This document shows, in pieces, positions 9,362 to 51,200 of a stretch of 64,000 nt of DNA. The notes under the pieces were generated by a model. It saw only the letters and a list, made by a program, of their open reading frames with translations, was not told the origin of the DNA and did not search any database. A program made the position numbers and the translations under genes. Position 1 is the first letter of the stretch; every line of letters begins with the position of its first letter. The stretch comes from Sphaerolaimus hirsutus (taxonomy: Eukaryota > Nematoda > Chromadorea > Monhysterida > Sphaerolaimidae), in contig OZ038450.1 of assembly GCA_964036195.1 (NCBI GenBank), positions 8,248,701 to 8,312,700 of the forward strand, given 5' to 3'.

Positions 9362-9543
9362 ATTTGGGTGCCTTTGAAAAAAAACATTTCATTAAAAAAA
9401 CATAATTCTTTAAACCCAGGTCATTGAAAAAGATGTTTTTTCCATCCCTTGTTGGGACTGCTATAAAATTCCGGGACCAGGACTGAGAAGTCGGGACCGG
9501 GACCAGGACTGGCTTTTTTAATTGTCGGGACCGGGACCGGGAC

Positions 9544-10048: not shown

Positions 10049-10744
10049 ACCGGGACCACCCCAGTTCCGACTTTTTGCCGAACCATGTAAATACCAGGAC
10101 CTCGGTCACGTTTGAACCCTACAATAAACGCCCAGAAAAGTTTTCATCTAAAAATTTCATATCCCTCCGGAGGAGCGATTTACTACCTATCAGAACCCCC
10201 GCTGGTGTCCAAATTAACAAGACCAAATCCCTGTCAGCAGGGGTTTAGTGGATTTGGACCCTCCGGGGGTTCATATAGATATTAAATCGCTCCTCCAGAG
10301 GGAGATGGCTGAAAATAATTTGTGAGGGGTGGGATTTGGGGAGGGGGTTCGTGGGGGTTCAATATATAGGCTTTTTCAAGATGTAGATGGAAGAGGGAAA
10401 AAAATCGCTAAACGTAGATAAAAAATAGCTAAAAATAGGTATATAAACATATATGGTATGAAAATTAGCTGAAAATAGACAATAAAACACATGAACTAGT
10501 GTATTTTGAGGTGAAAAACCACAAAAATGTCTGAAAATCAGCGATTTTGAGAGAAAATTATGGCAAAATTACTTTAAAAATCGCTTCAGAAAGATAGACA
10601 GCTGGCGATTTTTTATCGGGGGTCGAGGGATAGTAACCAAAAAATTTGCCTCAGGGTAGATACATATTTAGCTGAGCGGCCCCGGGGATAAATAGATAGC
10701 TGGAGCATTTGGGGGGGTAACCCGCCCACCCCAACCCCCCCATA

Positions 10745-17900: not shown

Positions 17901-20900
17901 ATGGCACTTTTGAGGGTTCGTTTGACACGCGTGATGACTATTTTTCAGAATCCATTTTGCAAAGTTTTCAGTTTTAACGTTGATTCGTTCATTATTTTAA
18001 CGACTGGCAATGCTCCCGATTAATTTCCATGCCCCCCCCCCCCTCTCAGGCATGAAATATTTCACCGCTGCGCCGTGCCACGGTGTGTTCGCTCCAGCGG
18101 ACAAAGTTCGTTTGGCGCCCGTACAACGTGATCAGACCTACGACCGGTCGCTCAACAACGGCGGCCAGATTTACGGAGGCCTAGTTAGTCATAACGCGGA
18201 AATTAGTCCGTCATAACATTTTGACAGTTTTGTGCGCGAGGCGATAGGACGCCGGCACTGCGCGCATTTTCTAAAATGTTCCCATCGCGTGATAAAAACC
18301 GCGCCGCACTGTTTCGGAGCAAAGTCGATGTTTGTATTTCGTCTTTGTCATGTTATGTCGTGTTATTTTATATTCATTTTATCTCGTAGTTAAGTTTTTC
18401 AACATTGCAATTAACTTCAAAACGTGAAGTTTCTGGAAGAGTTTCTGCGTGAAGTTTCTGACTCCCCATGTTACCCAACCACAAACATATAGCCGCTTTG
18501 AAAAGCTCTCTCCAAGCATTAGATCTATTCAACTCGCGGCCTCCTTGCCGATGGCCGCGCGTATCGTAACAGACAGCGTGCAGCCTTTCCTTCGCATGCG
18601 ACGCGCGGCGCGGCCGCGCCAGCAAACCGACTGCACTCAATCTTCGTGACCAAAGTTGTACTTCATGTATTCATGCACTTATCATGCGTAATGGGCATGG
18701 AACGGCGACCGAGTGTAGCTGATTGCAGTGCATGCGCCGCTGCCCTTTCCAATTGCTGGGTACTAAATAACCTACTTTCGAATGGAGAGCTTATGAACTC
18801 GGATTAGTTCATGGATTAAATGCGCTTTGGAAAGTATTCTTGTTTTCTAGATTGAGAAGCTAACATCGGTAGCTGCTGCCGCGTTTTTGCAATCGCAATT
18901 TTTCGGTGGAGGTGGTCTGACCAGGCACATTCTGTTTACTGTTTTTACATGTTTCATGCTTATTCAAGTTATGATTCGTGCTTTGCTACTAGGATGCGAA
19001 CTGGGGATGGCCAGCGCTTTTTTCAACTGCTTTAAAAAAGCTCAAAGGTTCCACCACTTTTTTAATGTGGGCAAAAAGGTCCCACAGAATGTTCACCGGG
19101 CTGCAGTGCTGTGAAATGCAGTGTGTTTTGAGTGTGAAATGGGCAAAAAAATTCAATATCTGGATATTTTAAAATTGCTTTTTTATACCGCCGTTGAAAA
19201 AAGGGCGTTTTCCATCCCTAATGCGAACCACAGCTTTTTGATGCTCACTTAGCCATTGTTCTATAGAACAGCAATCGGGAAAAACATTTTCTACAAAAGC
19301 ATGATGCTTCCTTTGTGCCCGCAGACCGGCAGCAGCGGCACATACAGCGTCCGCAGCGGCACGTTCACCAAATCTGGCCGTTCCCGTTCAAACGACAGGA
19401 CCGTCGCGGCCAACATGAGCACCGACTCCCCCATGCGCGCACCCAGAGTCCGCCGGTGCGAACTTTTCCTCTCTGTGCTCGGGTTCAAACGGGATTCCGA
19501 TATCGATCCCGATTCCTGTGAATCCAATCCCGATCAGTGGAAACGAGAAAAAGTTCAAACAATGACTTTTCGCACTGAGAAATGGTCAGCGTCCAATCTA
19601 TGCCACTTTTATGGCATCCAAGTGTATTTTTACATCAATTATGTGGCACATCAGAAAAAAAGCTTTGATCGTAACAATGCCCAAAATCCCGATCCCGAAC
19701 CTTCAATCCAGATCCCAAAACTAACAAAAATTTCCAGATCTCGAAAAGTCAACCCCCTTTGAACCTTACTCCATGCTTTCAAATGCGAGTCCTGAATCCC
19801 TTCGAAAATCACCATAGCGACACGTACACGCGCGACATGCACGGCGGGTCGGGCAGCACCATCGATGACCTCTACGGCGAGTCGGCCGCGGCGGCTGCTG
19901 CCGTTACTGCGGCCGAAACTCCTGTCTTTGGCTCGTCTGCGCCGACGCGCTCGTTCAATCTGATGGCCATGACTGATTTGGACGAGTCCATGGAGCTGCT
20001 CGATGATATCGGCCCGCCGCCGCAGTGCCAACTGGACACGTCAATCGCCGGATCGGTGTCCAGTGGTCGGTGCATTCAGTTCACTCAAATCTGGTACCAA
20101 TCCCACAGACCCTGTAAAGTGTAAAGTAAGTGTGAAATGTCGTGTAAAATGGTTTGCAATTGTCATGCAAAGTTCAGTAAAAAAATCTTCTTTTTTATTG
20201 GCATTTTACAGGACTTTTCACTCTTTACAGGACCTGACACTGCCCCCCTGAACGTAGTTTTGATTTTGACCGCCCTTTGTGACGCCCCTCAAAATCTGTG
20301 CAGGTTCCCGCCGCTGCTCCTCTGTAGCCGCCGTGGTTGACGACTCGTCGTGCGCGAGCGACCGGGCGCCCGCAGTCGAGCCGGCCCCTTCACTGGACGA
20401 CCACTTGACGCAGCTGGCCGCCAAGGGCGACATGTGCATGAACGGCTCGCCCACCTACGACAAATTGGCGGATATTGTGAAGACTGAGGCAAAGGTCCCT
20501 GCGCACGATGTGGGCGAGATGACCGACTCGCAGTGCACCCAGGTGCCAGTCCCAGACCCTGTGAAAGACCCTGTAAAGTGTTTTAAAAAACCTGTGAAAT
20601 GCCATGTGTCATGTAAAAATATGTATATGACCCTGCGTCTTTACATGGTTTTATATTTACATGACGCATGACATTTCACAGTGACTTTTACACTTTACAG
20701 GTTTTTTACAGGGTCTGGGACTGCCCCCAGGTGGAAGTGGAGGTTGATGTGAGAGAGAAGGTGGAGGTTGATGTGAGAGAGAAGGTGGAGGTTGATGTGA
20801 GAGAAAAGGTGGAGAAGTCACCGCCCATAGGTCGGTTTTGTTGCGTATTTTGTGGGTTCTTCGTTGTGTTCGAACGGGATCAGTATACCGTATTTCCTCG

Positions 20901-32900: not shown

Positions 32901-35900
32901 TTGTCAAATTTACAAAAAAAATTCTGAGACCTCCAGCCTAGGTAACTGGATTACCTTGAGAAAGATCAAGTATTTACTTTTGAGGCTCTGCTGTCACAAA
33001 CATGACAGAACAAGCGACACAGTGAAATGGCGTTATTCCTGGGTGCCCTGCCCTGTCCGTGCTCACTCTCAGGATTTTCCTTAGCAATCAAATCCTTCCA
33101 TCCTTAAATACCAACCGCTCCTTGTCAGGGCTCGGCGCAGCGCGCAAGAGTACTGCACATCCAGTGGGCGCCACTGCAGCTGGCAGCGGCGGCGCGACGT
33201 CGACAACGCGAAGTACGGCCGCGACGTCGGCGGCCGCCGTGCAGCGGGCTGAGAAACGCGCCGCGGAGGCTGAATGGCATGCCGGACGCCTGCGGCAAGT
33301 TGTTAAGGAGGACCGCAAGCGCGCTGCTAGCACTGTGGATGTGATGGCGCTGATCGTGGCTTCGTTTGATGATAGGGTTGGTTTGAGGATTGGTTAAATG
33401 GCCCTGCGTACACTAGTACACTATTGAAATTCGTGGAACTCATAAATCTGTTTTGAGGATATTTAGAGTTTACCACAATGAGTAGTCTGTCAAGAACTTT
33501 GACGCCGATCAGAGAACATTCATTCTGGTAAACTGAAATGTGCTCAAAACATTTGTGAGTTTCCAAACTTTTGATGGTTTACTGGTGTGCCTGGCCACAT
33601 TGTTTTTTGGAGTGTGGAGCGGCTGCGTGCATTTTTGTGTTTGCGAAACCGTTTCTCAAATGTTTATTCGTGCGCAGGTGACGAAACTGCAAAGTGAAAT
33701 GGCGCAGCTCATGGAATCATTCACTAATGCCAGGCGTGACATCGGTGGGTAACTTTCCATATCAGAATATTCCATACCGCCGGAGAATTATCTCCCGTGC
33801 TTGCTAAATAGTTCAGCCGACCAATAAAAAATCAAACAATACTCGCAGACGACCTTCGAGGTAAACTGGTCGATAGCGAAACGCAAAAAGACGAACTTCA
33901 ATGTGACCGCGCCGCCGAGCGAGCCGACCACGAAGTGCAACTGCAGCAACTGCATCAACAGGCGGCCGATCGTGAGTTAATTCGCGTCGTTTTGACGGCA
34001 CATTTTGCCGTCGCACTCGCGTTTTTCACCCCCCTTATCAGTTTTACATCTTTTGCGCGTGCACGCGCCACTGCGTTATCCATCCGTTTTACTATTCAAA
34101 TATGTGGTACGAAGTGCGCTCTTTCAGAAACTTTGAGTCAATTCTGGACGCGACGCGCGCGCGCGCGCGAAGATCATTTTCCGCTGTAAAGTTCTTATAA
34201 ACTCTGGAAATATACACCTCATCACTACAATCAATTTTGTGGCCAAAAGTGCAAACGGGGTCAGAAGATCATAAAACCGGCCGCAATGGAACGCACAAAG
34301 TCGTACATTTACGCGGACGTGCTTTACTGCCTGTGGGTGGTCAGCTGGGCACTGTCGCTGAGCCCGGCGCAGAGTGCACTGGTGCAGACGTTCTACAAGG
34401 ACCAGAGTCAACTACTGCTAATTGTGGTGCTCTTTGCATTCGCAGTTGCCGCCGCCCATGATGAGCAGTTGAAGCTTCTGCGTGAGCAACTTCAGCAGCA
34501 GGTCAGATTTGTCACTGTTTTTATATTGTCACAATTTCATTAGATTTATCTGCGGGGCGTGATCTCTCAATCGTGACAGCGCAATAAAATTTTCTCACAA
34601 AATCAAGTTTATCTCCCCTTATTACAGCATTGACGTTCATGCCGACAAAAAAAACCATGAGTTAAAAACGATCTATTTATTTGATGTAAACCTTAAAATT
34701 TACCTGTAAATTTATCACATACCTGGGGTTAGAAAAAACACAATTCTTTTTTAAAAACCGTATAGTATAGGGGCGTATAATAACCGTTGAACCAACAGAG
34801 GCATGTTGGTTGATATTATATACTACGCTAACATACCACGGATTGATTACTCGGGGGAGTTATTCAAGAGGGTTTTCTGCTCACGTCTACGCTGGTGATC
34901 TATGTGTATTTGGGGCGTATTCAAGAATTCACGATATGTATAACTGTTTTTGTCGATATTTTTCGTAACTTGCTTGACCATAAATTTTCTATACCTAATA
35001 AATCTATAGATAAACTTCTCCGCAGCCTTTTTTGCATATCATGCAAATGTATGAGCCTACGTTTGCAGTTGTTCACCATATGAATCCTAGAATAGCTGAA
35101 TATGAATCCTATGAAAAAGTTCATTAGGGGAATCAATCACATTACATCCTATCGCACATAAACATCCACCCACAGATACTAGCGGAGCGCGGCCGAGCGG
35201 ACAGCGCCGCCGCGCAGCTGGACGAGGCGGCCGCTCAATGGGCCGCCGAGCGCGATCAACGCGAGGCCGATTTCACCCGTCAGGTGGGCGACTTCGAGGC
35301 CAAGCTGACCGCGCTCGCCGACCAGGTAGACAGCCCCAGACCCTGTAACAGACCCTGTAAAGTGTAAAAGACCCTGTAAAATTTCATGTGTCATGTAGAA
35401 GGTCCTGTAATATGTCATGTGTCATGTAGAAGCACCTGTGCAGTGTCAGGTGTATCGGGATCTTATTGTATCGTATCTTTATCCTATGTTTTTGTATCCA
35501 AATCTTACTTGTGGACATAAGATTTGAATACAAAAACATAAGATTAGGACGCGATACAATAACATCTGCATACCTGACACTTTACACGGTTTTTACATGA
35601 CATTTGACGCTTTTCAGGTTTTTTCATGACATTTGACACTTTGCAGGGTCCTTTACACTTTACAGGGTCTTCTACAGGGTCTGGGACTGCCCCCAGGTCG
35701 ACAGACTGCGCGACAAGAATGTGAAGCTGCGCGTCGCGCTGCAGGCGGACACTAATGAGAAAGTAAGGGCGCTGCAAGCTGATTGTGATAGCTACATTGA
35801 AGCGTTGAATATAAAGTCGGCCGAGTTGAATGAGTTGAGGACGGAGAAAAATCGTCTACAACTGCTGGTTTGTTTGTTTTTCTGGGTTGTCGTTGATCCA

Positions 35901-38900
35901 TTATATCGTAAATTTTGGAATAAGCCCCTTCTCGTATAAGTTCCCCATCTTGTGACCGAGAGGAAAAAATACCCAGCCCCCCCCCCCCACTTTCATGGGT
36001 AGAAAACATTTCACATTTACAAATGTTACAAACATTGACGTTTCATGTTTTTACAAATATTTATTATCTTGCAGCCAGAGTTCAAAATTGATTTCACTGC
36101 TTGAATTGTAGATTTTATATTCCTACAAATGATTTATGTTGCCAAATTTACCCCATTTGTGCAGAAAATTTATCGTACATTTTACTGAAAATTCTGACGT
36201 TAAAATAACTCCCCCCTCGAATAAGTCCCTCTCAAAAAAATAACTCCCTTATCCGACTTAATAGTTCGACTTATTCTAAGATATACTGTATTCAGTCCGG
36301 TTTTTGTATTTTACTGCTAATATTGCAGGCCGACACAATACCTGATAAGGAAGTTGAAATTCGGAAGCTAACTGAGCGAATCGGCGACTTAAAGAGACAG
36401 GTTGATCAGAAACAACAGCGAGAAAAGTTTGTCTTTTTTCTGTGGTTTCAACTACGCAAACAGAATTTTTTTGCAGGGGCCAGTTCCGCAAGTGGATAAG
36501 TGAGAAGTAATATGGCAAAAGCGAAGTATATTGAGAAGTAAAATTGCAAAAGCGAAGCGAAAACACTTTATTTTTATTTTTTACTTCGCTTTTGCCAATT
36601 TACTTGCCACTTCATTTCACTTTATCCATTTCACTTCGCTTTTGCCATTTTACTCCTCACTTCTCCACTTGCGGCACTGGCACCTGGTAATCTACAACCT
36701 TCTAATTTATCACGCGCAGGGAACTGATGCACCGAATCGGCGTGCTGGACGACTCTTGCGTTCGACAACAGAAAGCAGAAACATCTCTGCGCCGCGAGCG
36801 CGACGAACTAGTCTTCAAACTGTCCACGGTGGGCTTGGGCGAGCAGACGACAAGCTCGGACGAGGAGCCGCAAGCAGGGAGGCGCGGCGTCGCCCATTTC
36901 AGCACCAGCCAGGTGCCAGTCCCAGACCCCGTAAAACGCCGTGTAAAATGTAAAATGTCATGCAAAGCGTCAAACTTCATGTAAGATGCCCTGCAAAATG
37001 GCAAACGTACGTTTGCCATTTTGCAGGGCGTTTTACATGACTTTCGACACTTTGCGTGACATTTGACATTTCACAGGGCATTTTACAGGGTCCTGGATTG
37101 CCCCCAGCTACGCACGCCGCAGACAGCACCCAACCGCCGGTCACGATCGTCCCATTCGGAGTGTAACGGGGGCAGCGGCGGCGTGACGCAGTCGGCCCGC
37201 GGACCCGCTACTCCGCACAACGCCACAGATCGTTGGTGCCATCTTGATGACCACCTCTTTTCTGGGGTTCAAACGGGATTGACTTTTCGGGTTGGGGATC
37301 GGGATTATCCCGGGATTTGGTCACGGGGTTGGGATTTTGGCCTAAGTTCTGGGATAGAGAGTTTTTCTGTAATGTTTCACAAAAAAAGTCTAAAACGCAC
37401 TTCACTTCGAGAAAAGTGGCCTTAAAGGCACACTACTGGAAATTTCGGTACACATTTCTCAGTGCAAGAAGTCATTTCTTTCACTTTTTTATCGTTTGCT
37501 CTAAATTTTTCTGTGTCGGGATCCCGATTGGGGAAGCTTTTCCGAATCGGGATTTGAAAATTTTCGTGAACGGGATTAGGATTTTCCGATTTTATTTTAT
37601 TTATTTATTTCGGTATCGGGATTGGCGTTTCGGAATCAGGATCGGAACTGCCGAATCCTGGAAACTTTCGGGATTCGGAATCGAGATCCCCTTTGAACCC
37701 TGCCTCACTCTCAATCCCATTCAGCTGGTCATTTCCACACTCCCTCTAGCAGCGCCGTCGATGTATCAATCGTGGCATCCGGACCGGCACGCGCCCGGCA
37801 GCGAGCTGGCCGTGACGCCGGTGCGCACGCCCGGCACCAGTTCCGCCCTGGCTACGTTGAGACGCAGCGGCAGGCGGATTGTCGCCGCCGATCGAAGTAC
37901 CAATGCTGATCGGATTTATGCGCCTGATGGTCGGTTTTGGCTGTTCTGAGTAGGGCTGTTTTGTTGTGTGAGGTCATTTCGGGTGTCAGACCCGTGCCCT
38001 GTAAAGTGTTTAGTTAAGTGTTAAATGTCATCACATTTAAATCGTCACATTTTCATTTAAAATCGTCACATACAATCGTCACATCGTCAAGTCATCACAT
38101 TTAAGTCATGTCGTGTAAAATGTCATCACAATTTGTCTACTGTCATGCAAAGTTCAGTAATAACATCTTTCCTTTTTTGTTTTGATTGACATTTTACATG
38201 ACATTTGACAGTGGACTTTACACTTTACAGGGCTCGGGACTGCCCCCCAATCGTCCCTGTATGTACTCTGGTATCCCAGTTTGCGTCAACCTTCGGTTAA
38301 CGTCCAACGCAGGTGTTATCACCTCGATGGACGGGCGCGTGCTGGCCGACGGCACGGGCGAGCGCGAACGCAGCCAAGTGCGCTGCCGCCTGTCCATGAC
38401 CGAATCACGAATGGATAGGTACGGATAAGTCATAGTCAACTTATTTTTGTTGTATAAAGTGCAAAAAGTTTTCAAAGAGATTCATAAAAATGATCACGGG
38501 AAATTGCAACCATAAATCATAATTAATCTGATGAACGATGAATCTGATCTGGTAGTGATAGTGGGAGCCGGTGTATTTTCCAAATTCAATTAAACTTAAA
38601 GTATCCGACACGCGAGTGAGAGCTGAAGTTGTTCGCTAACTTTACTGTCGGGAGCCTGCTTAGGGTGGCAGACGGTACGGCCTTGCGGTAAACCGTACGG
38701 TACGGTAAATTTTCTATTTTGCGGTAAACGGTACGGTACGGTAAATCTTCAATTTTGCGGTAAACGGTACGGTACGGTAAATCTGAAAAGTGCGGTACAC
38801 GGTACGGTACGGTAAATTTCCGATTGTCAGAAATGTATCAATGCCGGAAGAGGTACATGCAACTGTTACTTGATAAATTGACACCAAATCCAGTTACACA

Positions 38901-40239
38901 ATTTGATCAATAGATGATATAAAATTACATCACCCTCAATGTAGGGGCTCAATATATAGGCTTATTCAGGTGTAGAAGGAAGAAAAGGGAGAAAAAATTG
39001 CTAAGTGGGTGGAAAATTGCTAAAGGTATGGGAAATTCACACCTTAAGAGCATGTGGAAGCACATGGCTTGATTTTATAGACACAATATACTAATGTAAA
39101 CCATGACTTATAGCAACATTGCATGCAGAAATGGGAGGGCTTCATATCAGGAAAAAATCATGTTATGAAATTTGCGTGCTTGCGCGCAAAAAAATTTTCA
39201 GAACACCACATTAATTGTCATCAATAAATTGGCATATTCAAGGTCAATCTGAATGAAATTTACCGCATTTTCTGCGGTAAATGAGTGCGGTACGCGGTAC
39301 GGTACGGTAAATTTTGGAAAATGCGGTACGCGGTACGCAGGGACGTATCCAGGATTTTAGAGCGGGGGGGGGGGCTGCTTGTTTACGGAACCCGGCGAAC
39401 GGGGGGGGCTCAGCCCCCCCCTGAAATTTTGCCTGTACAATGACGAAATGGCGCCATGGCGCTGGCGCCATTCATAGGCGTTGGCGCTAGCGCCAGAAAG
39501 CGCTGTAAATGTATGTAAATATACATACATTCACAGTGAAAGGTACATTATTGGGTGCATTTTCTGGTATGTGTGACGCGGGGACCTATATGCTTAAAAT
39601 ACCATGTGTTTAGGGGCAAATGCGCGCTTGCGCGCAAAAATTTTGCATACACCGTCAAAAATTTCTACTAAAAGTTGCATTTTCGGTGGGTTTTCTTGTC
39701 TCACCCCGGGAAGGGGGGGGGGCTGCAGCCCCCCCCGCCCCCCCCCCCCTGGATACGTCCTTGGCGGTACGGTACGGTAAATTTCTAAAAGTGCGGTAAA
39801 CGGTACGGTACGGTACGGTAAATTTCCCAAAAATGCGGTACGGTACGGTAAATTCTGCCACCCTAAGCCTGCTTACATACTTTTTATCCTTGTACCTTTA
39901 TATCCTTGAATAAGTCCCCTCTCCAACTGCACCCCCTTCGAATAACTCCCACCTGTTAGCGGACTGAGGAAAAAGAACACCCCATCGAATAAGTTCCTTG
40001 ACTAAAAAGCCCGAATAACTCCCCCGGGGACTTATTCGAGGATATACAGTAATTACCTTACGTTCTAATTGTCCTACATTCTAATTGAATCACTGTTATC
40101 TCGCAGGAGCGACGAGGACTCTGCATGCGCCGATGAAGGCTCCTCGGCGCCGCCGCGGCCAATCAGCGACTCTGGCGTGTTCCTGGCCGGCTCGTGCACC
40201 TTCACCGACGTCGACCACACCATCCTGGAGGAAGCCTGA
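14924..40239 (+). CDS. CAP-Gly domain, coiled-coil protein (CLIP-like microtubule plus-end protein)
   Basis: Spliced model of 27 exons: 14924-14926 (tentative ATG), 17029-17269, 17436-17529, 17656-17915, 18050-18183, 19325-19455, 19818-20065, 20304-20542, 20731-20830, 21628-21707, 23042-23281, 23442-23558, 24556-24736, 30860-31153, 32046-32204, 33129-33376, 33678-33744, 33849-33971, 34446-34501, 35176-35325, 35697-35867, 36329-36426, 36720-36912, 37108-37266, 37725-37929, 38313-38418, 40107-40239 (TGA). Total 4230 nt, 1409 residues. Every junction is GT-AG and phases agree. Residues about 155-222 form one CAP-Gly domain ([35 protein letters not shown]), closest in my reading to the second CAP-Gly of CLIP-170. 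Low-complexity Ser/Ala/Thr regions follow, then heptad-rich coiled coil at about 870-1190 and an acidic tail ending ILEEA. No CCHC zinc knuckle is seen. Known role of the family: binding growing microtubule ends and tubulin/EB tails in the cytoplasm. Weak points are the first exon and the 6.1-kb join 24736/30860, so two genes are possible. Confidence 0.8.
15699..15970. mobile_element. hAT-like element related to TAGCATTGAAAAAATC, in intron 1
   Basis: Ends GAGCGTTGCAAAAATC and TTTTTTGGAACGCTA; perfect 8-bp duplication TTCACGCA on both sides. The body is A/T-rich with ATCTCTCA / TGAGAT words. Confidence 0.7.
16226..16592. mobile_element. TA-flanked MITE (TACCGTATTTCC type) in intron 1
   Basis: Left CTGTATTTCCTCGAATTACC and right GGTATTTCGAGGAAATACGG TA. 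The interior has G-rich words such as GGGGGGTTAAACGAGG, shared with 20886-21167. Confidence 0.65.
17656..18183 (+). CDS. CAP-Gly domain exons (4 and 5) of the CLIP-like gene
   Basis: Exon 17656-17915 carries the first two thirds of the CAP-Gly fold: the [18 protein letters not shown] strand pair, then [12 protein letters not shown] and the [12 protein letters not shown] groove, where GLHDG replaces the canonical GKNDG. A phase-1 intron (17916-18049) splits the Gly codon after FEG. Exon 18050-18183 completes the domain with [19 protein letters not shown]. The Gly-Lys-Asn-Asp-Gly groove binds C-terminal EEY/F tails in known members. The Lys-Asn to Leu-His change here may alter binding, which is inference. 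This is the strongest homology evidence in the gene. Confidence 0.92.
19488..19767. mobile_element. Diverged GGGATC-family element in intron 6
   Basis: Left GGGTTCAAACGGGATTCCGA at 19488; right CAACCCCCTTTGAACCTTAC to about 19770. The words are inverted relative to the intact copies (CCCGATCCCGA). The intron runs 19456-19817 by phase. Confidence 0.6.
20093..20248. mobile_element. Introner-family copy inside intron 7 of the CLIP-like gene
   Basis: Left end GGTACCAATCCCACAGACCC, TGTAAAGTGTAAAG; right end CTTTACAGGACCTGACACTG followed by CCCCC. The ends are diverged. The intron runs 20066-20303 by phase, so this copy lies within it and does not supply the splice sites. It may be an older intron whose splice sites shifted, or an insertion into an existing intron. 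Confidence 0.7.
20543..20730 (+). mobile_element. Introner: element forming intron 8 of the CLIP-like gene
   Basis: Intron and element coincide. The exon ends ACCCAG and the element starts GTGCCAGTCCCAGACCCTGT; it ends with GGGTCTGGGACTGCCCCCAG, after which the exon resumes GTGGAAGTGG. It is 188 bp, phase 0. The body is a foldback: the left AGACCCTGT...ACCCTGTAAAGTGT arm pairs with the right ACACTTTACAGG...ACAGGGTCT arm. CCAG occurs on both sides, compatible with a 3-4 bp target duplication that supplies the 3' AG. Confidence 0.88.
20748..20820 (+). repeat. 24-bp in-frame tandem repeat, three copies
   Basis: GAGGTTGATGTGAGAGAGAA followed by GGTG is repeated three times in exon 9 of the CLIP-like gene, encoding VEVDVREK three times. 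The exon is only 100 bp and starts directly after an introner. Confidence 0.85.
20886..21167. mobile_element. TA-flanked MITE inserted in a degraded GGGATC element
   Basis: TACCGTATTTCCTCG at the left and CGAGGAAATACGGTA at the right. Outside it, GTGTTCGAACGGGATCAG on one side and a GGGATCGGGAT-containing stretch ending GGTTGAACCTTA (to about 21482) on the other are halves of an older TAGGGTTCAAACGGGAT element. Confidence 0.65.
22173..22854. mobile_element. hAT-like element with long A/T-run arrays
   Basis: Ends TAGGGTTGGAAAAAA and CGGCCAACCCTA; perfect 8-bp duplication TACCTACC. The arrays are AAAAAACGTTTTTTT. The core has GCGCGCTTGCGCGC followed by AAAAATTTTGC. It is closely related to the element at 28705-29698. 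Confidence 0.82.
23640..23758. mobile_element. Degraded introner-family right half in intron 12
   Basis: The TGTCATGACATTTGACTTTAC body and CACTTTACGACTTTGGGACT ACCCCCGGC end match the right half of the family with changes. It is immediately followed by, and its CCCCCGGC end duplicated by, a hAT-like element (23759-24217). A left end is not clear. Confidence 0.5.
23759..24217. mobile_element. hAT-like element, CAGGGACGTATCC family
   Basis: Ends CAAGGACGTAGCC and GGCTACGTCCCTG; perfect 8-bp duplication CCCCCGGC, which is also the end of a degraded introner. The body has GCGCGCGAGCGCGC and TGGCGCCAGCGCCATGGCGC. It lies in intron 12 of the CLIP-like gene. Confidence 0.85.
26208..26561. mobile_element. 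TAGTGATGTAAAA element with GCGCCAAGCGCC arrays
   Basis: Ends TAGTGATGTAAAAGCGCCA and TGGCGCTTTTCACATCACTA. The whole body is GCGCCATGGCGCTTTTGGCG-type repeat. Flanks TAAGAGAC and GTCTAGAC do not match well, so the duplication has decayed or the edge has changed. Confidence 0.72.
28705..29698. mobile_element. hAT-like element with A/T-run arrays, carrying a nested element
   Basis: Ends TAGGGATGGCCGAAAAAGG and TTGACCATCCCTA; perfect 8-bp duplication GTTTCAGG. Its core matches 22261-22740. A CAGGGACGTATCC-family element sits at 29110-29403. Confidence 0.82.
29110..29403. mobile_element. hAT-like element, CAGGGACGTATCC family, nested
   Basis: Ends CAGGGACGTACGCAGG and CTGCGTACGTCCTTG; perfect 8-bp duplication ATTATATA at 29102-29109 and 29404-29411. 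The body has GGCGCTTGCGCCATTTGTAG and TGGCGCTGGCGCCAACG. Confidence 0.85.
31553..31984. mobile_element. hAT-like element, CAGGGACGTATCC family, in intron 14
   Basis: Ends CAGGGACGTATCCAGG and CCTGGATACGTCCTTG; perfect 8-bp duplication CTCATTAG. It includes TGGCGCTAGCGCCATACAAA, and ATGTATGTAAAAATGCATAC, a dyad shared with 39338-39763 and 5082-6032. Confidence 0.87.
33129..36912 (+). CDS. Coiled-coil exons (16-23) of the CLIP-like gene
   Basis: Eight exons (33129-33376, 33678-33744, 33849-33971, 34446-34501, 35176-35325, 35697-35867, 36329-36426, 36720-36912) encode almost uninterrupted heptad sequence rich in E, K, Q, R, A and L. Examples are [47 protein letters not shown] and [19 protein letters not shown]. 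This is typical of a dimerising rod. Introns 35326-35696 and 36913-37107, at the ends of exons 20 and 23, are introner insertions. Exon GC content contrasts sharply with the AT-rich introns. Confidence 0.85.
34286..34501 (+). CDS. Possible alternative first exon with two hydrophobic segments, reading into coiled-coil exon 19
   Basis: An ATG at 34286 in a good context (GCCGCAATGG) opens a frame with strong GC-ending codon bias. It encodes about 53 residues with two hydrophobic stretches ([17 protein letters not shown] and [15 protein letters not shown]) and reads without a stop into exon 19 of the CLIP-like gene in its own frame. The main isoform would splice past it using the acceptor TTTGCATTCGCAG at 34433-34445. 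If used as a first exon, it would make a membrane-anchored coiled-coil protein lacking the CAP-Gly domain. I do not recognise the segment, and it could be chance. Confidence 0.35.
35326..35696 (+). mobile_element. Introner: element forming intron 20 of the CLIP-like gene
   Basis: The exon ends GCCGACCAG. The element starts GTAGACAGCCCCAGACCCTG and ends GGGTCTGGGACTGCCCCCAG; the exon resumes GTCGACAGACTG. It is 371 bp, phase 0. It is longer than its sisters because the centre holds an extra inverted repeat built on TATCCAAATCTTA / TAAGATTTG. GTAGACAG on the left and GTCGACAG on the right match at 7 of 8 positions, which might be an 8-bp target duplication, though the left copy is also close to the family's usual end. 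Confidence 0.88.
36474..36684. repeat. Foldback repeat GGGCCAGTTCCGCAA in intron 22
   Basis: GGGGCCAGTTCCGCAAGTGG at the left and CCACTTGCGGCACTGGCACC at the right are inverted. The body is GCAAAAGCGAAG/CTTCGCTTTTGC arrays. A second copy is at 4258-4505. The outer GGTGCCAGT resembles the introner end GGTGCCAGTCCC. Confidence 0.65.
36913..37107 (+). mobile_element. Introner: element forming intron 23 of the CLIP-like gene
   Basis: The exon ends ACCAGCCAG. The element starts GTGCCAGTCCCAGACCCCGT and ends GGTCCTGGATTGCCCCCAG; the exon resumes CTACGCACGCCG. It is 195 bp, phase 0. Long complementary arms meet near 37005-37030 at a GCAAACGTACGTTTGC palindrome, so the whole intron can fold into one hairpin. 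Confidence 0.87.
37266..37698 (+). mobile_element. GGGATC-family element at the 5' edge of intron 24 of the CLIP-like gene
   Basis: The left end GGGGTTCAAACGGGATTGAC starts at the exon boundary, so the donor GT (37267-37268) is the element's own. The right end is CCCTTTGAACCCTG at about 37698; the acceptor CCCATTCAG is 27 bp further on. The flanks CTCTTTTC and CCTCACTC match at only five of eight positions. Confidence 0.65.
37983..38248. mobile_element. Introner-family copy inside intron 25 of the CLIP-like gene
   Basis: GTGTCAGACCCGTGCCCTGT, then AAAGTG, at the left; CACTTTACAGGGCTCGGGAC TGCCCCCC at the right. The body is the usual mix of TCACATTTAAATCG and TGTCATGCAAAGTTCAG words. The host intron (37930-38312 by phase) extends beyond both ends. 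Confidence 0.7.
38661..39865. mobile_element. hAT-like element with CGGTACGGTAAA arrays
   Basis: Ends TAGGGTGGCAGACGGTACGG and TACGGTAAATTCTGCCACCCTA-like; perfect 8-bp duplication AGCCTGCT. CGGTACGGTAAAT arrays lie at both ends. The core has TGCGTGCTTGCGCGCAAAAA. It lies in intron 26 of the CLIP-like gene and carries a nested element at 39338-39763. Confidence 0.88.
39338..39763. mobile_element. hAT-like element, CAGGGACGTATCC family, nested in a GGTACGG array
   Basis: Ends CAGGGACGTATCCAGG and CCTGGATACGTCCTTG; perfect 8-bp duplication GCGGTACG, taken from the host array. The body has GGCGCCATGGCGCTGGCGCC, ATGTAAATATACATACAT and GCGCGCTTGCGCGC. Confidence 0.87.
39895..40053. mobile_element. 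MITE with ATATCCTTGAATAAG / CTTATTCGAGGATAT ends
   Basis: A short inverted-repeat element in intron 26, 53 bp before the last exon. Similar ends occur at 7228, 10980-11372, 35925-36293, 46095-46550, 54612-54810 and 61490-61937. The ends resemble the TACCGTATTTCC MITE in layout (G-rich interior) but not in exact sequence. Confidence 0.55.
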
Positions 40240-42873
40240 TCTGCGTTGCCTTTTTGTGAATCGTGCCATTTTTGCGCTGAGAGGTTTTGAACGCTCCCAT
40301 CTATCTACATATTTTGTATTTACATATTTTGTCAACCAATGGGTAGGGTGATTTTCATCCTTTCTTTCAGATTATCGCTGTGTAGAAATCAATCGTGCTT
40401 TGTGTAATTTTGCGGCGTGAATGTTCCTTTTTGGGCGGAGTCTTAGATTCTATTAGATGTCGATGTGTGTAGATATTTGTCTACTAATGTTACTCGCACT
40501 ATCCATTGCCTGGTTGATCTCTTATGGGAACACATCGTTTTTGCTGCAACTCAGGTGGATGGTTTTTCAATGTCCTTGGATGTGGATTTGATGTGCTTTA
40601 TTGCGTCTGCCATGTTTTTGGTCGACTGGCGACTAGAAGAGTAGTGTCCATACATTGAGGAGTTTTTTCCACTTTCAACTGCATTTTGCATATTATATAT
40701 TACAGATTCTGCCTCTGGGGGCCGGTCCCAGACCCTGTAAAGTGTGAAGAAATGTGTCAAATGTAATGTGAATGTCAATCAAAAAATAGGTATTGACAAT
40801 TGAATTGATACTATATTTTTCAGGACACTTGACACTTTGCATGATATTTTACATGACATTTGACACTTTACTCTACATAAATACAGGGTCTGAGATTGGC
40901 ACCTGATTGCTACTCGTGGTACAGTGTACCTGATTTCTACTTGCAATCGCTTTGAAATTTCACATTCTCTTTTCCGATAAGCTTGCATTCCTGAAAAACA
41001 TGTATTTAATGCAAATGATAGGACAGTGTAAACGTGAACCGTGTACCTGTAAAAACATCCCCGGAAATATTTCCCCTCTATTCCTGAGAGGAGCAGGTAG
41101 AGAGTTTTTTCCCTAAAGATTACGAAATTATTCTAAAAGACAGAGTGATATTTACTTGAAATGGTCCACAGGGGATTTATTTGAGTGTATGCGGTTTGTA
41201 CTGTATGTTTTTTGCTATTATCGTTGCTAACGTATGTGAATGTTTTTATCATGACGGACAAATTTTTCCAGCATCTAAGTCACATTCAATGATCGGTGAC
41301 GTTATTGTTACTACTCAATTGTATTTTTTTTCGATTTGTATTTACAATAAAACAATTCTGAACGGCATTTCCTTATGAAAAGTGACAAAGCTTGAATTCA
41401 TCCGCAATGCATTAAAATATATACTTTTTGCAGTTGCAAAGGTATAACCGGGGCCAGTTCTATCCTGAGCCGAACCCTGTGAAACTTGTCATAAAGATTT
41501 GTCAAATGTCGCTAAAATGTCAAATATCGAATAAAATGCTAAAACAAGAGCTTCACTGGCTTTACTTGTCACTCAAAAAAGATGTCTCACAATTTACATG
41601 GCATTCTGTCAGATGCGTGGTTGACCTCGGCCTCGCTGAAAAAGCAGTGCAATGCGCTGAATTCCTTACCTAACCAACTAAAATAACTACCGTATTTCCT
41701 CGAAATACCCCCCCCCCTCGAAATACCCCCTCCCCCTCGTTTGACCCCCCCTCTCGAGACCACTATGAAACAATCACCCCCCCCTCGAAATACCCCCCCC
41801 CCCGATTGAGTGTAAAGAGAACGTACATGACAAATACTGCAGTTTGTGTTCTGCGTAGTGCAGAACACGGGTTTAAACAATGTCGTAATCACGTTAGAAC
41901 AGTGTTTATACCGTCTACATACTAATATCAGTCTACATAACCTTATAAATGGCGGTTTTTGTTGTATTTTTTGACGGCTGCGTACGTTACAGACGACAAG
42001 TTCGTACTGGGATTTGAAATTTTTTTATTGAAATAATAACCCCCCTCCCCTCGAAATACCCCCCCCCTCGTTTAACCCCCCCCCCTCTCTCGGGACCACT
42101 ATGAAACAATCACCCCCCGGGGGGTATTTCGAGGAAATACGGTATATATTAGACACGTGTTGAGCGGCGTTTGACCGGTCAAAGTGAAAATATATGCTTT
42201 TCCCGTCTGTTGGCGGCGTCATTTATAAAAGTGGCTTTCTCAGCTACATCAACGGGATAATTTACAATAGTACATAAATACATAGCCATGCATGTATTGA
42301 TGTGAGTACAAGTGGAATTCTTTCGTTTGTTCTGAAATTAGTGCCGTTGGTTCAACCAGTTTCGGAAAATTGTGAAGCTTCTCTAATTAGAAGAAATTTG
42401 GAAAACAAGAAAACGATTTTTGGGCTCAACTGGTTTCTGGTTCATCCGTTTGGTGACTATGTACTTTTACTGTGTTTGTTACTAATCACTGTAAGCCACA
42501 TCAGCTTGTGCAAGTGATTTTATTTTTCGAATCGCCACTGTGGGGGGCTTCCGTATGTTGGTTTGTCTTTTTTTGATGGTGGGCGACAGGATCACAGTAT
42601 ATTGACTTCATTGCTAAAAGTCGTGCGTGTCAACAATTCCAGAACGGGTCATTTAGGTAGCTTTGAATCGAGAATCCCTGCCGAGTTCCGTCTATATAAT
42701 GTATAATTATGTACCTCGCTTTGCCGGGTTCCGCACTGCACTGCAACACGTGTCGTAAGTTCTACAGGGTGCGAGCTTTGCCAATGGTGCAGTGCCGCGC
42801 TGCAGCGGCTGCTGCCGCCGTGCCGCCGCACATTCAGGTCGAAACTCACCAGTGGTAAATTTTGCGAGCGAAA
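40240..42873 (+). other. Region between the CLIP-like and hypothetical genes
   Basis: It holds the CLIP-like 3' UTR (an AATAAA at 41346 is the first clear one, 1.1 kb past the stop), an introner-family copy (40715-40904), and a TACCGTATTTCC MITE (41688-42144) with internal duplication. A CpG-rich stretch at 42700-42873 is the likely promoter and 5' UTR of the next gene. No coding exon seen. Confidence 0.5.
40715..40904. mobile_element. Introner-family copy downstream of the CLIP-like stop codon
   Basis: CTGGGGGCCGGTCCCAGACC CTGTAAAGTG at the left and ATACAGGGTCTGAGATTGGC ACCTG at the right. Between them lie typical TGTCAAATGT / ACATTTGACAC arms. It lies 480 bp past the TGA and so is outside coding sequence, either in a 3' UTR intron or intergenic. 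Confidence 0.7.
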
Positions 42874-45800
42874 ATGTCGTACGAAAATGGCCCCAAAAGC
42901 ACAGACTTCATACCGGCCGAATTGCCGTGAGTGACGTTTAAGTGGTTTTACGCCTACGCGGTATTTGTGGTTTATCGCGGTTCAAGTTTGTTGTGCGACC
43001 AAGTTTCTTAGTGCCAGTATGCATCAACATGTGTGTGTTGAAAAACTGCCTGATGAATCGCTTTCTTATTGGGTCTACTTGTCTGTTTTTAGGTCTGGCC
43101 CATTTTAAGTCCATTAACTTTCTGGTCTGAACCAGTTCACACTTCTCTGCCGACATCGAGCCGTTCCACTGTGGCAAACTAGGATAAAAATACAAAACCT
43201 TCCAGTGACCGGCATCTGTTGAAACGAAGCAGGGCGGCCGCGACAAGGGTCAAGCTAGAAAACTTCGATTCGCCCTCTGAACGCTACTTTCGTAATCGCA
43301 GAAGAGTGATTAAGTACGGAGAGACGATCAGCGAATTTCTGAAAACCGGTTTCAAGCCGGCTGAGGTCAGTTTTGTTTAAATTGTGCTTGACATCAATAT
43401 TTACCAAAACAACCAAAGAAGGTATTTCCCTGCAACTAACCGAATTTTCAACCCGTTTTTATCACCCATTCGATGTTGTGACTTGTGAGATGTTGCTTAA
43501 TCTCATTCATATTTATTTTGTCATAAAATTTTGTCCTTTAAATTTGAATTTTCCTGGCTTGCTATGAAGCTAATGAAATATCTGTCTGAAAAATTCACGC
43601 AAATCATAGTGGATACAAATTACACACGTATTTTAAATTGTACTGCTCTATTTGAACATTCATGAAGTTTCTAGACATTTTGTACTGCCAAACACAGTGG
43701 AGTGTTGCGTACAGGGCCATGCGAAGTCTAAAGTCAAGTGTAAAATTTCATGTAAAATGTCAATCAAAACAAAGAAATATTATTTTATCACAGAAATTTC
43801 GACACATTGCATGAAAATTGACAGATTTGAATGACATTTTACATAACATTTACAACTCGACTTTACACTTTACAGCGCTCGGGACTGGCACCAGGTGCCA
43901 ATCCCAGACCCTGAACAGTGTAAAGTATAGTGTCAAATGTCATGCAAAGTGTCAATTGTCATGAATAATGTAAAGTAAAGTGTCAATTGTCAAAGAAATT
44001 TCAGTAATAAAGTCTGTTCTTTTTTGTTTTGATTGACATTTTACATGACATTTGACACTCTATTTCACACTTTACAGGGCTCGGGACCAGGTGGCCCTTC
44101 ACTGTAGGTAGATACTTTTCAGCCGCGGAAAATGCGCGACTGCGGCTGGACGGGCGAGCGGCGGGCGGCGCGCTCCAGCGACGTGCTGGTGGGCGGTTCG
44201 CACGCGCACAACTACGGCAAGTTCGTCAGTCAGATGTTCAAGAACAAGCCCGACGCCCAGCAGGTGGCCGACCACTTCGCTAAGGAGTCAGTTTGCGATT
44301 TGCGTTACACTGTAGATGTTTATGTAGCTATTTACCTTATATCCTTTGAGTGGGAAAGTACCTTTGAGTGGGAAAGTAGTGATGAACAAATTTTTTATAT
44401 ATTTATTCGAAAAACACGTTAGAAATTAGAAATTGTTTCATTAGAATATCAAGCATCGAGACCCTTTTAAAAGATGGCAGCTGAACTACTGATTCACTAG
44501 GTAATTCGGTATTTTTTAAGATTCCAACATACCGTATTTTATCGAAATATCCCCGCCCCCGTCGAAATACACCCACCCTCGAAATACCACCACCCCAATG
44601 AGTGTAAAGTGAATGAAATTGCCAAAATAATTCTTGCGAATAAATATCCCCAACCCGAAATACCCCCTCCCTAGATTACCCCACACCCCCTCAAAATTTG
44701 CACTCTGAACAAATGAACTCCCTGGGGTATTTCGAAGCAGTACGGTATTCATATTCCGGGATATTTTTATTTGTTATGTTGTATAGTTTTAGTGGCAAAC
44801 CAAACCAAACCGTAATAATAAGTCATAGCCCATGTTAGTGTAGAATATAAGATTAGTCAATGTGCTTCCACTTAAATACTTTTGAAGTAAATATGAAACC
44901 ATCTAATACTTTTGAAGTAAATATGAAACCATCTAATACTTTTGAAGTAAATATAAAACCATCTAAAGGATGGGAACTAATCGATGATTCACTTCCCGGT
45001 ATATATCACAACCCTGTCTTTAATACTCACAGTGCAATGGCAAACGCAGCGGTAGAGGATCAACTGTACACGTTGACTAGTGACCAGGAACTGACACCAA
45101 AGGTAAAAATAACATTTTCATATTATTTTTACATTCCATGTCAATAAAAAAATATCAGTATGATCGGCGGACTTTATAGTCTGCACGCACACTTATTTGT
45201 CTCGTTTTGGAAACGTGCCAGTGATAATTAAAGCATGCTATGTTTGTAATTGTAAGGAGGTGAAAAAATATTATTTTGAACATGTAAACATATATGTAAC
45301 GTTATAGTTATAGTCCAGTTACTTTACACCCTGCACGCGTGGTTCCCGCTGGAAGCGTGCCAACTACTTTTCTAGCCATGCGATTTTAATAAAAAGTTAA
45401 AAAAAGTCATTTCTGTTATAGCGCTATATGTTCACTTATTCACAACAATAAATTTTTTCATCTGTCATACAAAAATCGCATGCTTTATCATCATTGGCAT
45501 GCTTCCAATGTGAGGCATAAATGAGTGCGAGGGCAGAGTATCATGTCCGCCGAGTATACAACGAGTTTTTTTTTGTGGAAATCTCATGCGTCGGATATCG
45601 TTGCAAGGTGTAACGTGCAAGGTCACTGAAGTATAACGAAAACGGTAAAAATGATGTGTCTTGTGCACTCAGCATGTTCTGCATATGGAAAAGTTGGACC
45701 ACATGGACAACCAGGACAGCTCCGAGCAGAACTACAACAGCGGCAGCTACAACGGCAGCAGCAACGCCAACGGCACTGACCAAATCTACGATGATCACTA

Positions 45801-48241: not shown

Positions 48242-51200
48242 TTACAATTCCCCATTTAAATCATTTTCTCTTGGTTGTGTGCCTCTGGTTAAAGCCAAGA
48301 TAATCAGGAATACAGCAACGATGACGCCAAACAGAAGAACGCATGCCAATTCAAACGTGAGAAAAATAAATGCCACCCAATAAAGTGCGGGCGAGCAATA
48401 GTTATTCGATTCTTGGGCACCGTCCAGATCGATGTAGCGCCTCGACGCGTAGATCCACACAACACCTGTGCGAGCGAAGTTCGTTGTCCAGAGTTCCAGA
48501 CGTGAAAAGCTTTTTAATCGAACTTGTTAGGAGCGGTCTATTTCAGTGGAGAATTCATTAGCGTGCAGTGGGTAATTTTCTCAGGTAGCCACAATCCGAC
48601 TGGGGGGTTTATCGAGGTGGATTCCGAGGGAAACTTTTTTCGAACACCCTCGGGATTTATTTCAAGTACTCGAGATTTTTAAAAGAGAGGACTTGTTCAA
48701 GAGTTTGAAGTACCGTATTTCCTCGAATTGACCCCCCCCCCTTGAAATACCCCAATGTTTGAGCGACCTGGTGGCAGTCCCAAGCCCTGTAAAGTGTAAA
48801 GTAAAGTGTCAAATGTAAAGTCAAATGCAAAGTAAACTGTCAATTGTGATGCAAAGTTCAGTAATAAAATCTTTTCTTTTTTGTTTTGATTGACACTTTA
48901 CTTTGCATTTGACTTTACATTTGACACTTGACTTTACACTTTACAGGGCTTGGGACTGCCCCCTGGGGAAATAATAACCCTCTCCACGAAAAAACCCTTC
49001 TTGAATTCTGTACATCAACATGATGTACACTCAATGTACATTATGTTTGAATTGTTGGAATTTTGCATCACATCACTAGGGTGTCAAAAAAATTTTTTTA
49101 CGGAAACGGAAACGGAAAAAAAATTTCAGCGGCCGGAAAACGGAAAAAGAGGCCGGAAAAACGGAAACGGAAAAATCAAATTTGCATGGAAATGGAAAAA
49201 CTTGCTGAAATTTTGCCGGAAAACGGATAATCTTTGCTGAAATTTAGCTGGAAGTGGACAAAATTTGCAGTAATTTTGCTGGAAACAGAAATTTTTTTAC
49301 ATCATTGACAATCTGCATGACTTTTAACCAGTTTGGCTGATCAGAAAACAGAAAGTTGAGCCAGAAAAAGATAAAATGAGGCGGAAAAATGGAAAATTGA
49401 TGCCCAAATTGGAAAAAAGGCGGAAAAACTGAAAATTGAGGCAGAAAACGGAAAAAAGGCAGAAAAACTGAAAATTGAGCCGGAAAACGGAAAATGAGCC
49501 GGAAAACGGAAAATGAGCCGGAAAAACGGAAACGGAGAAAAAAGTTGCCGGAAAACGGAACGGAAAACGGAAAAAAAATTTCAGCAGCCGGAAAACGGAA
49601 CGGAAAACGGAAAAAATTTGCCTGCAGAAAACGGAAACGGAAAACGGAAATTTGACACCCTACACATCACACTAGTTTGTGTTGTACCTACATGCATTTG
49701 TCCAAACGTATAAATTTTTATATCCTGTTTTGTCACAATTATTACCAGTTTCGGTATGTAAAAGCGTGTTATTTACTAAGATTCTTCACGGAAATTTCTG
49801 ACGAAATAATAACCCCTTGAATAAGCCTCCCTCGAATTAAACCCCCTTAAAATATGCTGGCGGAATATTAAACCCCCTGGGGGTTCGAAGAAACACGGTA
49901 GACGTAACAAAAACACAAAAAGAATTACCGGCAATGGCCCAGACGAGTATGAAAGCCTTGAGCGCGGCGCCGAGCAGCCGTCTCAATATAACGCCGGCGC
50001 GCATCGAGTGCTGCTCGTTGACGTGGCTCATTGCGGTCGCCGTGGTCGACAGCTGGGGGCAGTCCCAGACCCTGTAAAATACCCTGTAAAATGTCATGTA
50101 AAAAACCCTGTCAACTGTCATCTGTCTATCTTATTCCATAGTATCCAAATCATTTTGCTTTGTATCCAAATATTATGCCCAAACGTAAGATTTGGATAAA
50201 AACAATATTTGGACACTATTGAATGAGATTTAGATACACATGGCGCTTTACAGGGTCTTTTACATGACACACGACATTTTACAGGGTCTTTTACATGACA
50301 CACGACATTTTACAGGGTCTTTTACATACATTTTACAGGGTCATATACAGGGTCTGGGACTGGCACCTGGCCGTTGCTCTGCGCCCGGTGTTGAAGGTGT
50401 CTGCGCGGCCGCGGCCAGCGCTCCCAGATGATAAGGTTGTCGAGCAGCAGTAACACCGCGCCGTTCACGATCGTGTGCACCGGCACCATGGGCTCGCCGG
50501 GGCAGTTGAACAAGTTCACGGCGCCTGAATGAGTTTTAGCAGTTTGACACCTTGTCGAATGATAAGTCAGTTGCGAGTGAAGTTCGGTGACAAGACAAGT
50601 AAACTTGTTAGTGATGAGTACCGAATTTCATATGCACCGAGCTTGCTGACTGCTTGACTTGTCTGTTATTTGAAACTTCCCTTAACCCTTCACATCGTGG
50701 CATTGCTACCAGGACATTGCCTTGCTGTGATGTGAATAAAAGCACTACATGATAATTCTATGAATCAACTGACCAAAGATGATGATGCCCAACGGTATGA
50801 TGCCCAAGAAGTAAAAGCAGGCGATCCACATCCCTGCAGAGATGGGACAGTTTTATTCACACACGCACACAGCCTCAAAAAATAAGAGGTGTTAAAAGTA
50901 CTGAACTTCTTTCAAAGTAAACGTAAAGTATTTATTTTTTACTCACCGATGAGTACAGAAAACGTAAAAGTACAAAAAGACGATATCAAAACCTATACCA
51001 AATACGTTCTGTGTACTCGAGTAGGTACATTAACAAAGTTACACGTACGTACTTAAAAACGTCAACGTATGTAAGCATTTAAGTACTCGCGCATACGTAT
51101 TTGTCGAGTAAACGTAAATACGTTTTTACAACAACTATGCAAAAAAATGCTTCAAGGCGCACATGGATTTCCGGCGTGCGCGGCGCTCAGCTGCAGGTTG

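What the first reader, a model, noticed from the sequence alone, without database searches (positions are those of the whole stretch)
20543..50366. Introner family: one transposon family forms complete introns in two genes on opposite strands
Seen: introns 20543-20730, 35326-35696 and 36913-37107 (+) and 50053-50366 (-) are each exactly one copy of the same inverted-repeat element. The left end GTGCCAGTCCCAGACCCTGT gives the donor, and the right end GGGTCTGGGACTGCCCCCAG gives the acceptor. Flanking exons read on in frame in every case. All four are phase 0, all follow a CAG codon, and all are oriented with the host gene. Known: introners (intron-generating transposons) have been described in a number of eukaryotes. 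Inference: this genome has an active or recently active family, and three of the 26 introns of one gene arose by transposition.
Basis: partly seen in the sequence, partly recalled or inferred. Interest (0 to 1): 0.93.

Follow-up and report, generated by a model that had tools for sequence, protein, structure and literature searches.

The report
Jumping DNA that makes new introns
In an unnamed animal genome, a small jumping DNA element lands inside protein-coding exons and seems to behave as a ready-made intron, and many copies end in the letters TG instead of the usual AG, which, if transcripts confirm it, breaks a nearly universal rule of gene splicing.

Summary
All four introns are single copies of one TIR element, each flanked by a duplicated CAG. 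The family is genome-wide: the 16-base TIR core occurs 4,426 times, its reversed control never. The target duplication is real: 47 of 80 paired copies carry identical triplets, mostly CAG or CTG, once CAT. The donor GT is TIR bases 1-2; the acceptor is the right-hand duplicate. CWG duplications and GGG-starting TIRs recall NuwaI (PIF/Harbinger) transposons; no transposase was found.

Removing the element plus one duplicate restores conserved proteins without a gap (Na/K-ATPase, cyclin Y, SLC23, CNOT9). Pfam hits on joined flanks: about 9 of 90 forward peptides, 0 of 82 reverse.

The surprise: some exonic copies, including those in CNOT9 and SLC23, carry CTG at the right end, so the intron would run GT...TG. 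Left-CTG copies often have CAG on the right (10 of 40); left-CAG copies rarely have CTG (2 of 50; p=0.003), as if selection converts TG acceptors to AG. No transcripts were available, so splicing is inferred.

The parts
20543..20730 (+). Complete intron = element 20543-20727 plus right CAG duplicate 20728-20730 (left CAG 20540-20542)
   Evidence: as locus L026
35326..35696 (+). Complete intron = element (variant left end GTAGACAG) plus right CAG duplicate 35694-35696
36913..37107 (+). Complete intron = element plus right CAG duplicate 37105-37107; palindrome with arms 82% complementary
50053..50366 (-). Complete intron on the minus strand = element plus CAG duplicate (50053-50055 in + coordinates)
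   Evidence: (as locus L027)
48768..48965 (+). Family copy with CTG/CTG target duplication; no evidence that it lies in an exon
40716..40905 (-). Family copy in reverse orientation, downstream of the apparent stop codon of the plus-strand gene
37981..38249 (+). Degenerate family copy inside what looks like a larger intron
20095..20250 (+). Degenerate family copy inside what looks like a larger intron
43709..43892 (-). Degenerate family copy, abutting the next one
43893..44095 (+). Degenerate family copy beginning CAG|GTGCCAATCCCAGACCC
36474..36692 (-). Sister MITE family with the same terminal motif (on the minus strand CAG|GTGCCAGTGCCGCAAG ... ACTGGCCCCTG)
   Evidence: sequence

Best explanation
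The four introns are copies of a non-autonomous DNA transposon, probably mobilised by a NuwaI-type PIF/Harbinger transposase that inserts at CWG and duplicates those three bases (assignment inferred). The ancestral TIR would begin GGG, as one end still does; the other TIR begins GTG, and that one-base difference supplies a 5' splice site. Insertion into CAG in the sense direction gives CAG|GT...CCCCCAG|, a complete intron with no change to the coding sequence: the TIR brings the donor and the target duplicate brings the acceptor. The RNA folds into a long hairpin. It would pair the internal GTAAAA donor-like and TTTTACAG acceptor-like sites and hold the terminal GT and CWG close together. Insertion into CTG gives the same structure with CTG at the end; I infer that exon joining then uses TG, perhaps after first-step recognition of the ACAG 19 nt upstream, and that selection later turns TG into AG. 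Shown: element, TIRs, duplication, sense orientation, restored reading frames, predicted hairpin, asymmetric CTG-to-CAG change. Inferred: splicing itself, use of TG (about 0.55), transposase type (about 0.65).
For:: four whole-element introns; 4,426 core sites; 649 CAG- and 563 CTG-flanked exact left ends; reversed controls 0; identical triplets on both sides in 47 of 80 pairs; in 43 of 46 pairs not selected by their ends, one TIR has T and the other G as second base (I orient the element by this, so the finding is that the two ends differ). Gapless best alignment across the join: Na/K-ATPase L032 CAG/CAG, Na/K-ATPase L095 CTG/CAG, cyclin Y L090 CTG/CAG, SLC23A1 L091 CTG/CTG, CNOT9 L100 CTG/CTG. 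Further domains across the join: sugar transporter L102 CTG/CTG, CHPF L075 CTG/CTG (a 2-residue gap lies beyond the join), Srx-type receptor L086 CTG/CTG. Orientation: Pfam E<=0.01 for 10 families, each in one forward peptide of 90 (9 peptides if the two LRR families are one), 0 of 82 reverse. Joined flanks (90+90 nt) open on the element's strand in 51 of 70, control 25%. Paralogues keeping a CTG/CTG copy: dN/dS 0.17-0.24 in one family over 324 exon nt without visible indel, elements with 27-46 gap positions. Hairpin: TIR stem in 35 of 37, median z -17 against 20 mononucleotide shuffles each. Right-hand CTG-to-CAG change 10 of 40 against CAG-to-CTG 2 of 50, p=0.003 on the four main cells; CTG...CAG 32 genome-wide.
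Against: No transcript was available. The opposite strand of joined flanks is open almost as often (45 of 70), so open frames alone do not give orientation. 33 of 80 pairs lack identical triplets at the fixed offset, some through a shift of one C, some through change. predicts that the terminal GT and AG/TG bases are mostly paired too (35 and 33 of 37), so the fold does not clearly expose them. No transposase or autonomous copy was found; the search for PF13359 did not complete. The fourth cell of the genome-wide table (CAG...CTG) did not complete, so the asymmetry rests on 90 loci, 12 of which had no callable right end and a few of which are paralogous (L017/L018, L086/L087, L121/L122). The excess of G after CTG copies could partly be a target preference. 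L030 has a GDT1 gene on the opposite strand, but the domain does not cross the join. In humans TG acceptors are reported never to be the sole site (PMC2374985, abstract and passages).
Confidence: 0.75

Rival explanations
1. Ordinary GT-AG introner only: CAG copies are introns, while CTG copies in exons are unspliced, harmful or non-functional insertions captured by the assembly.
For: CAG...CAG pairs outnumber CTG...CTG 128 to 66 in one length band, as if CTG copies were partly removed. CTG ends lack AG.
Against: CTG/CTG copies sit in CNOT9, SLC23, a sugar transporter, CHPF and Srx-type genes with frames intact on both sides. Two gene families kept a CTG/CTG copy through duplication; in one dN/dS is 0.17-0.24, in the other there are too few changes to weigh. 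G follows the element in 19 of 21 CTG/CTG copies against 20 of 38 CAG/CAG copies, p=0.004, which may reflect a splice-related constraint.
Confidence: 0.2
2. Excision at DNA level: the elements are removed precisely from somatic DNA by a domesticated transposase, like ciliate internal eliminated sequences, so splice sites are irrelevant.
For: Exact removal of element plus one duplicate restores the gene whether the duplicate is CAG or CTG.
Against: The domain-supported exonic copies found in the two-strand scan are in sense orientation (10 families forward, none reverse) and right-hand duplicates drift towards CAG. Neither is expected if RNA signals do not matter.
Confidence: 0.07
3. Structure-guided, non-GT-AG removal of the hairpin, as suggested for introners of the dinoflagellate Amoebophrya, rather than TG recognition by a standard spliceosome.
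For: Very strong predicted hairpins with direct repeats at the borders. Amoebophrya introners are described with inverted repeats, direct repeats and non-canonical ends (PMC7789003, passages).
Against: Here one end carries GT almost always and the acceptor tends to AG, which suggests spliceosomal signals matter.
Confidence: 0.15

Closest known systems
Introners of TIR DNA-transposon type (Gozashti et al. 2022, PMC9860276; abstract, first part of the results section and passages seen)
   Same: Near-identical whole-element introns in many genes, TIRs, 3-9 bp duplications, one splice site in the element and the other recruited from the duplicate.
   Different: That survey found introners in only two animal groups (a passage names copepods). 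Here the duplicate is CWG, so sense insertions can leave a TG acceptor; I saw no such case in the parts I read.
NuwaI transposons, PHIS (PIF/Harbinger) superfamily (PMC4482050; section 7 and passages seen)
   Same: CWG target duplications, TIRs usually starting GGG, animal hosts.
   Different: No DDE or Myb/SANT gene was found here; one TIR starts GTG; intron formation is not mentioned in the passages I saw.
Non-canonical introns of the tunicate Fritillaria borealis (PMC13326754; abstract, introduction and one results section seen)
   Same: An animal in which a triplet often precedes the donor and recurs as the last three bases of the intron (YAY there, CWG here), giving non-AG 3' ends.
   Different: There AG/AC and AG/AT are the most frequent ends and <10% of introns are GT/AG; here the donor stays GT, and the two ordinary gene 1 introns that I read by eye are GT-AG.
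Human TG 3' splice sites (Szafranski et al. 2007, PMC2374985; abstract and passages seen)
   Same: Introns ending in TG with an AG within 28 nt; here ACAG lies 19 nt upstream of the CTG end.
   Different: In human they are only alternative sites beside a used AG; here the upstream AG would shift the frame, so TG would have to be the main site.

Membership tests
Introner | Many introns in unrelated genes similar end to end | tested here: met
   with gene evidence in 36, 58-60, 85
Introner | Insertion into coding sequence with the protein continuous after removal | tested here: met
Introner | TIR and/or target site duplication (DNA type) | tested here: met
Introner | Sense orientation in genes | tested here: met
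   (10 families forward, 0 reverse)
Introner | Excess in genes genome-wide | tested here: inconclusive
   open joined flanks 51 of 70 against 25% of random 180-mers; no gene annotation was available
Introner | Splicing supported by transcripts | not testable with these tools
   no RNA data held
Introner | Intron absent at the site in relatives | not testable with these tools
   G000 has no relatives here; solved homologues show protein continuity only
NuwaI (PIF/Harbinger) | CWG target duplication | tested here: met
   exceptions exist, such as CAT/CAT at L052 and an unclear site at L077
NuwaI (PIF/Harbinger) | TIR starting GGG | tested here: inconclusive
   one end GGGG in 30 of 46, the other GTGC in 37 of 46
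NuwaI (PIF/Harbinger) | DDE transposase and Myb/SANT genes in autonomous copies | not tested
   PF13359 search did not complete
Canonical U2-type GT-AG intron | Ends in AG, CAG-duplicate copies | tested here: met
Canonical U2-type GT-AG intron | Ends in AG, CTG-duplicate copies | tested here: not met
   splice borders inferred

The most novel reading that the evidence does not exclude
A transposon family with a palindromic CWG target has seeded an animal genome with introns, a large share of which end in TG and are spliced constitutively at TG, with selection gradually converting them to AG. That would be a natural series showing how a spliceosome tolerates, and evolution repairs, a non-AG 3' splice site.
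Probability: 0.5. Interest if true: 0.88.

Novelty: new variant of a known kind. Interest (0 to 1): 0.76.

Why it matters
It gives a concrete route by which an ordinary MITE becomes an intron generator: one base change in one TIR supplies the donor, and the transposase's own target preference supplies the acceptor and the exon border. Because the target is CWG, about half of sense insertions would test what happens when the last dinucleotide is TG. The AG rule can then be studied as an evolutionary process, with unrepaired (CTG/CTG), repaired (CTG/CAG) and canonical (CAG/CAG) introns of otherwise similar sequence in one genome. Introners were found in only two animal groups in a survey of 3,325 genomes (PMC9860276, passages).

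Tried and rejected
A codon-usage score trained on 2,229 nt of gene 1 was too weak to place coding strands (left and right flank agreed in 7 of 25 CAG, 7 of 19 CTG and 6 of 30 other copies) and was dropped. Alternative splicing of CTG copies through internal sites was rejected by frame: donors inside the left end keep 0, 6 or 18 nt and the only AG in the right end keeps 19 nt with the duplicate, so no sum is a multiple of three (my arithmetic from the sequences). 15 loci whose partner end was missing or weak were screened for longer elements; I saw no transposase in the ORFs printed, but ran no family scan on them. The organism could not be named: mitochondrial contig C762 (14,754 bp) codes a COX1 whose best named hits among the 120 listed are insects at about 65%, with 89% only to an unnamed sequence; an Srx-type receptor match hints at a nematode-like animal but settles nothing. 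GDT1 next to L030 looked like a reverse exonic copy, but the domain starts about 25 residues past the join. Searches planned but did not complete: PF13359, CAG...CTG, and receptor paralogues without the element. Spliced-leader RNA and U2AF searches were planned and never sent. Paper searches on introners, non-canonical introns and TG acceptors showed no CWG or TG introner in the titles and abstract starts listed; that is a statement about those listings only.
Full report
What is there. One search reads the four intervals back from the window. One search finds further, more diverged copies in the window, including one reverse copy beyond the apparent stop codon of gene 1 and copies buried in what look like larger introns.

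Genome-wide. The window is C1:8248701-8312700 of a 348,482,957-base genome in 762 contigs. The core CAGTCCCAGACCCTGT occurs 2242+2184 times, its reversed control 0 times. Preceded by GTGC and a target triplet, exact left ends number 649 with CAG and 563 with CTG.

Anatomy. I paired ends in 306 kb of sequence, window included (80 pairs), and in 90 loci chosen by their left end. The element runs GTGC-CAGTCCCAGACCC ... GGGTCTGGGACTG-CCCC, median about 180 bp. The three bases outside the left end recur after the right end in 47 of 80 pairs: CAG/CAG and CTG/CTG, and CAT/CAT at L052. The other 33 differ at the fixed offset, some only by one C more or less. Variation between sites with identity within a site is what separates a duplication from a mere preference. 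In 43 of 46 pairs not selected by their ends, one TIR has T and the other G as second base. Since I orient elements by that base, the finding is that the two ends differ and that one end carries GT as a fixed property. RNA folding gives the TIR stem in 35 of 37 and median z -17 against mononucleotide shuffles, with the caution that terminal bases were mostly paired too (35 and 33 of 37).

Copies as introns. If an exonic insertion is removed as element plus one duplicate, the protein should read through. It does, without gaps in the best alignment, against solved proteins: Na/K-ATPase at L032 (CAG/CAG) and L095 (CTG/CAG), cyclin Y at L090 (CTG/CAG), SLC23A1 at L091 (CTG/CTG), CNOT9 at L100 (CTG/CTG). 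Pfam domains also cross the join at L075 CHGN, L086 Srx and L102 Sugar_tr; NHL at L072 is weak (E 0.017). Of the 40 peptides I picked by eye for Pfam, many had no hit, and the picking favoured the forward strand. To guard against that, I scanned the longest joined reading frame on each strand of 117 elements (92 had one forward, 83 reverse). Forward, 10 families each matched one peptide of 90; I take the two LRR families as one peptide, hence 9. Reverse, 0 of 82 matched. Using only the longest frame misses some true frames, for example SLC23 and cyclin Y. Joined flanks are open on the element's own strand in 19 of 30 CTG-left and 32 of 40 CAG-left copies, against 25% of random 180-mers from loci L039-L058. 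The opposite strand is also often open (19 and 26), as GC-rich exons tend to be, so this test alone does not give orientation.

The TG ends. For CTG/CTG copies no choice of borders that yields the restored protein ends in AG. By sliding the borders I get CT-CC, TG-CC, GG-CT, GT-TG and, where the next exon starts with G, TG-GG; GT-TG is the only one with a normal donor. Two gene families kept such a copy through duplication: L086/L087 (5 differences in 411 exon nt, too few to weigh) and L040/L041/L073 (dN/dS 0.17-0.24 over 324 exon nt, 27-46 gap positions in the element). In the 90 selected loci, left-CTG copies had right CTG 21, right CAG 10, other 4, no callable end 5; left-CAG copies had right CAG 38, right CTG 2, other 3, none 7 (Fisher p=0.003 on the four main cells). 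Genome-wide, with one length band and exact ends: CAG...CAG 128, CTG...CTG 66, CTG...CAG 32; CAG...CTG did not complete. G follows the element in 19 of 21 CTG/CTG copies and 20 of 38 CAG/CAG copies (p=0.004), while C before the triplet does not differ (11 of 21 and 26 of 38, p=0.27). I read these as signs that the TG end is a working but inferior acceptor. The human TG-AG tandem literature (PMC2374985, passages) offers a mechanism: a nearby AG supports the first step and TG is chosen in the second; here ACAG lies 19 nt upstream, inside the stem. The same paper says TG is never the sole site in human, which is the strongest argument against my reading.

Origin. CWG duplications and TIRs usually starting GGG are marks of NuwaI elements in the PIF/Harbinger superfamily, reported there only from animals (PMC4482050 section 7). 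I did not find a transposase, so this is an assignment by two features, one of them met at one end only.

Known and new. TIR-type introners that recruit one splice site from the duplicate are known (PMC9860276), and an animal with triplet-flanked non-AG introns is known in Fritillaria (PMC13326754). New here, as far as the cited listings and passages go, is an animal introner with CWG duplications, a donor set by one TIR base, and a TG class in exons of conserved genes. Without transcripts this remains an inference from anatomy and evolution.

Noticed in passing
window 36474-36692: A second palindromic MITE family shares the terminal motif GTGCCAGT / ACTGGCCCC and lies in an apparent intron of gene 1; possibly a second introner family of the same transposase.
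   Followed up: no
L040, L041, L042, L043, L073: A small gene family with an alanine/serine-rich exon, four copies within about 53 kb and one at C1:5.31 Mb, all apparently carrying a GTGA-type element (CTG/CTG in the three copies compared).
   Followed up: partly
L086, L087: Two near-identical Srx-type chemoreceptor-like genes about 16 kb apart, each with the element at the same site but with different inner palindromes.
   Followed up: partly
L139 (G000 C762, 14754 bp): Mitochondrial contig: cox1 with 14 in-frame TGA and, on the opposite strand, an open frame about 10 bases upstream that I recognise as nad1 (no search run); COX1 far from the named relatives listed (about 65%).
   Followed up: partly
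window 38676-39870: Stretch rich in GGTACGGTAAAT-type repeats interrupted by another repeat, in an apparent intron of gene 1 (seen).
   Followed up: no
window 9001-10749: Large inverted repeats (arms up to 147 nt, 92% complementary), apparently another element family.
   Followed up: no
L088, G000 C1:8196870-8197590: Possible reverse exonic copy: an open frame on the opposite strand crosses the join; an internal donor CCCT|GTAAAA with acceptor GCACCAG would add 18 nt in frame. No domain hit.
   Followed up: partly
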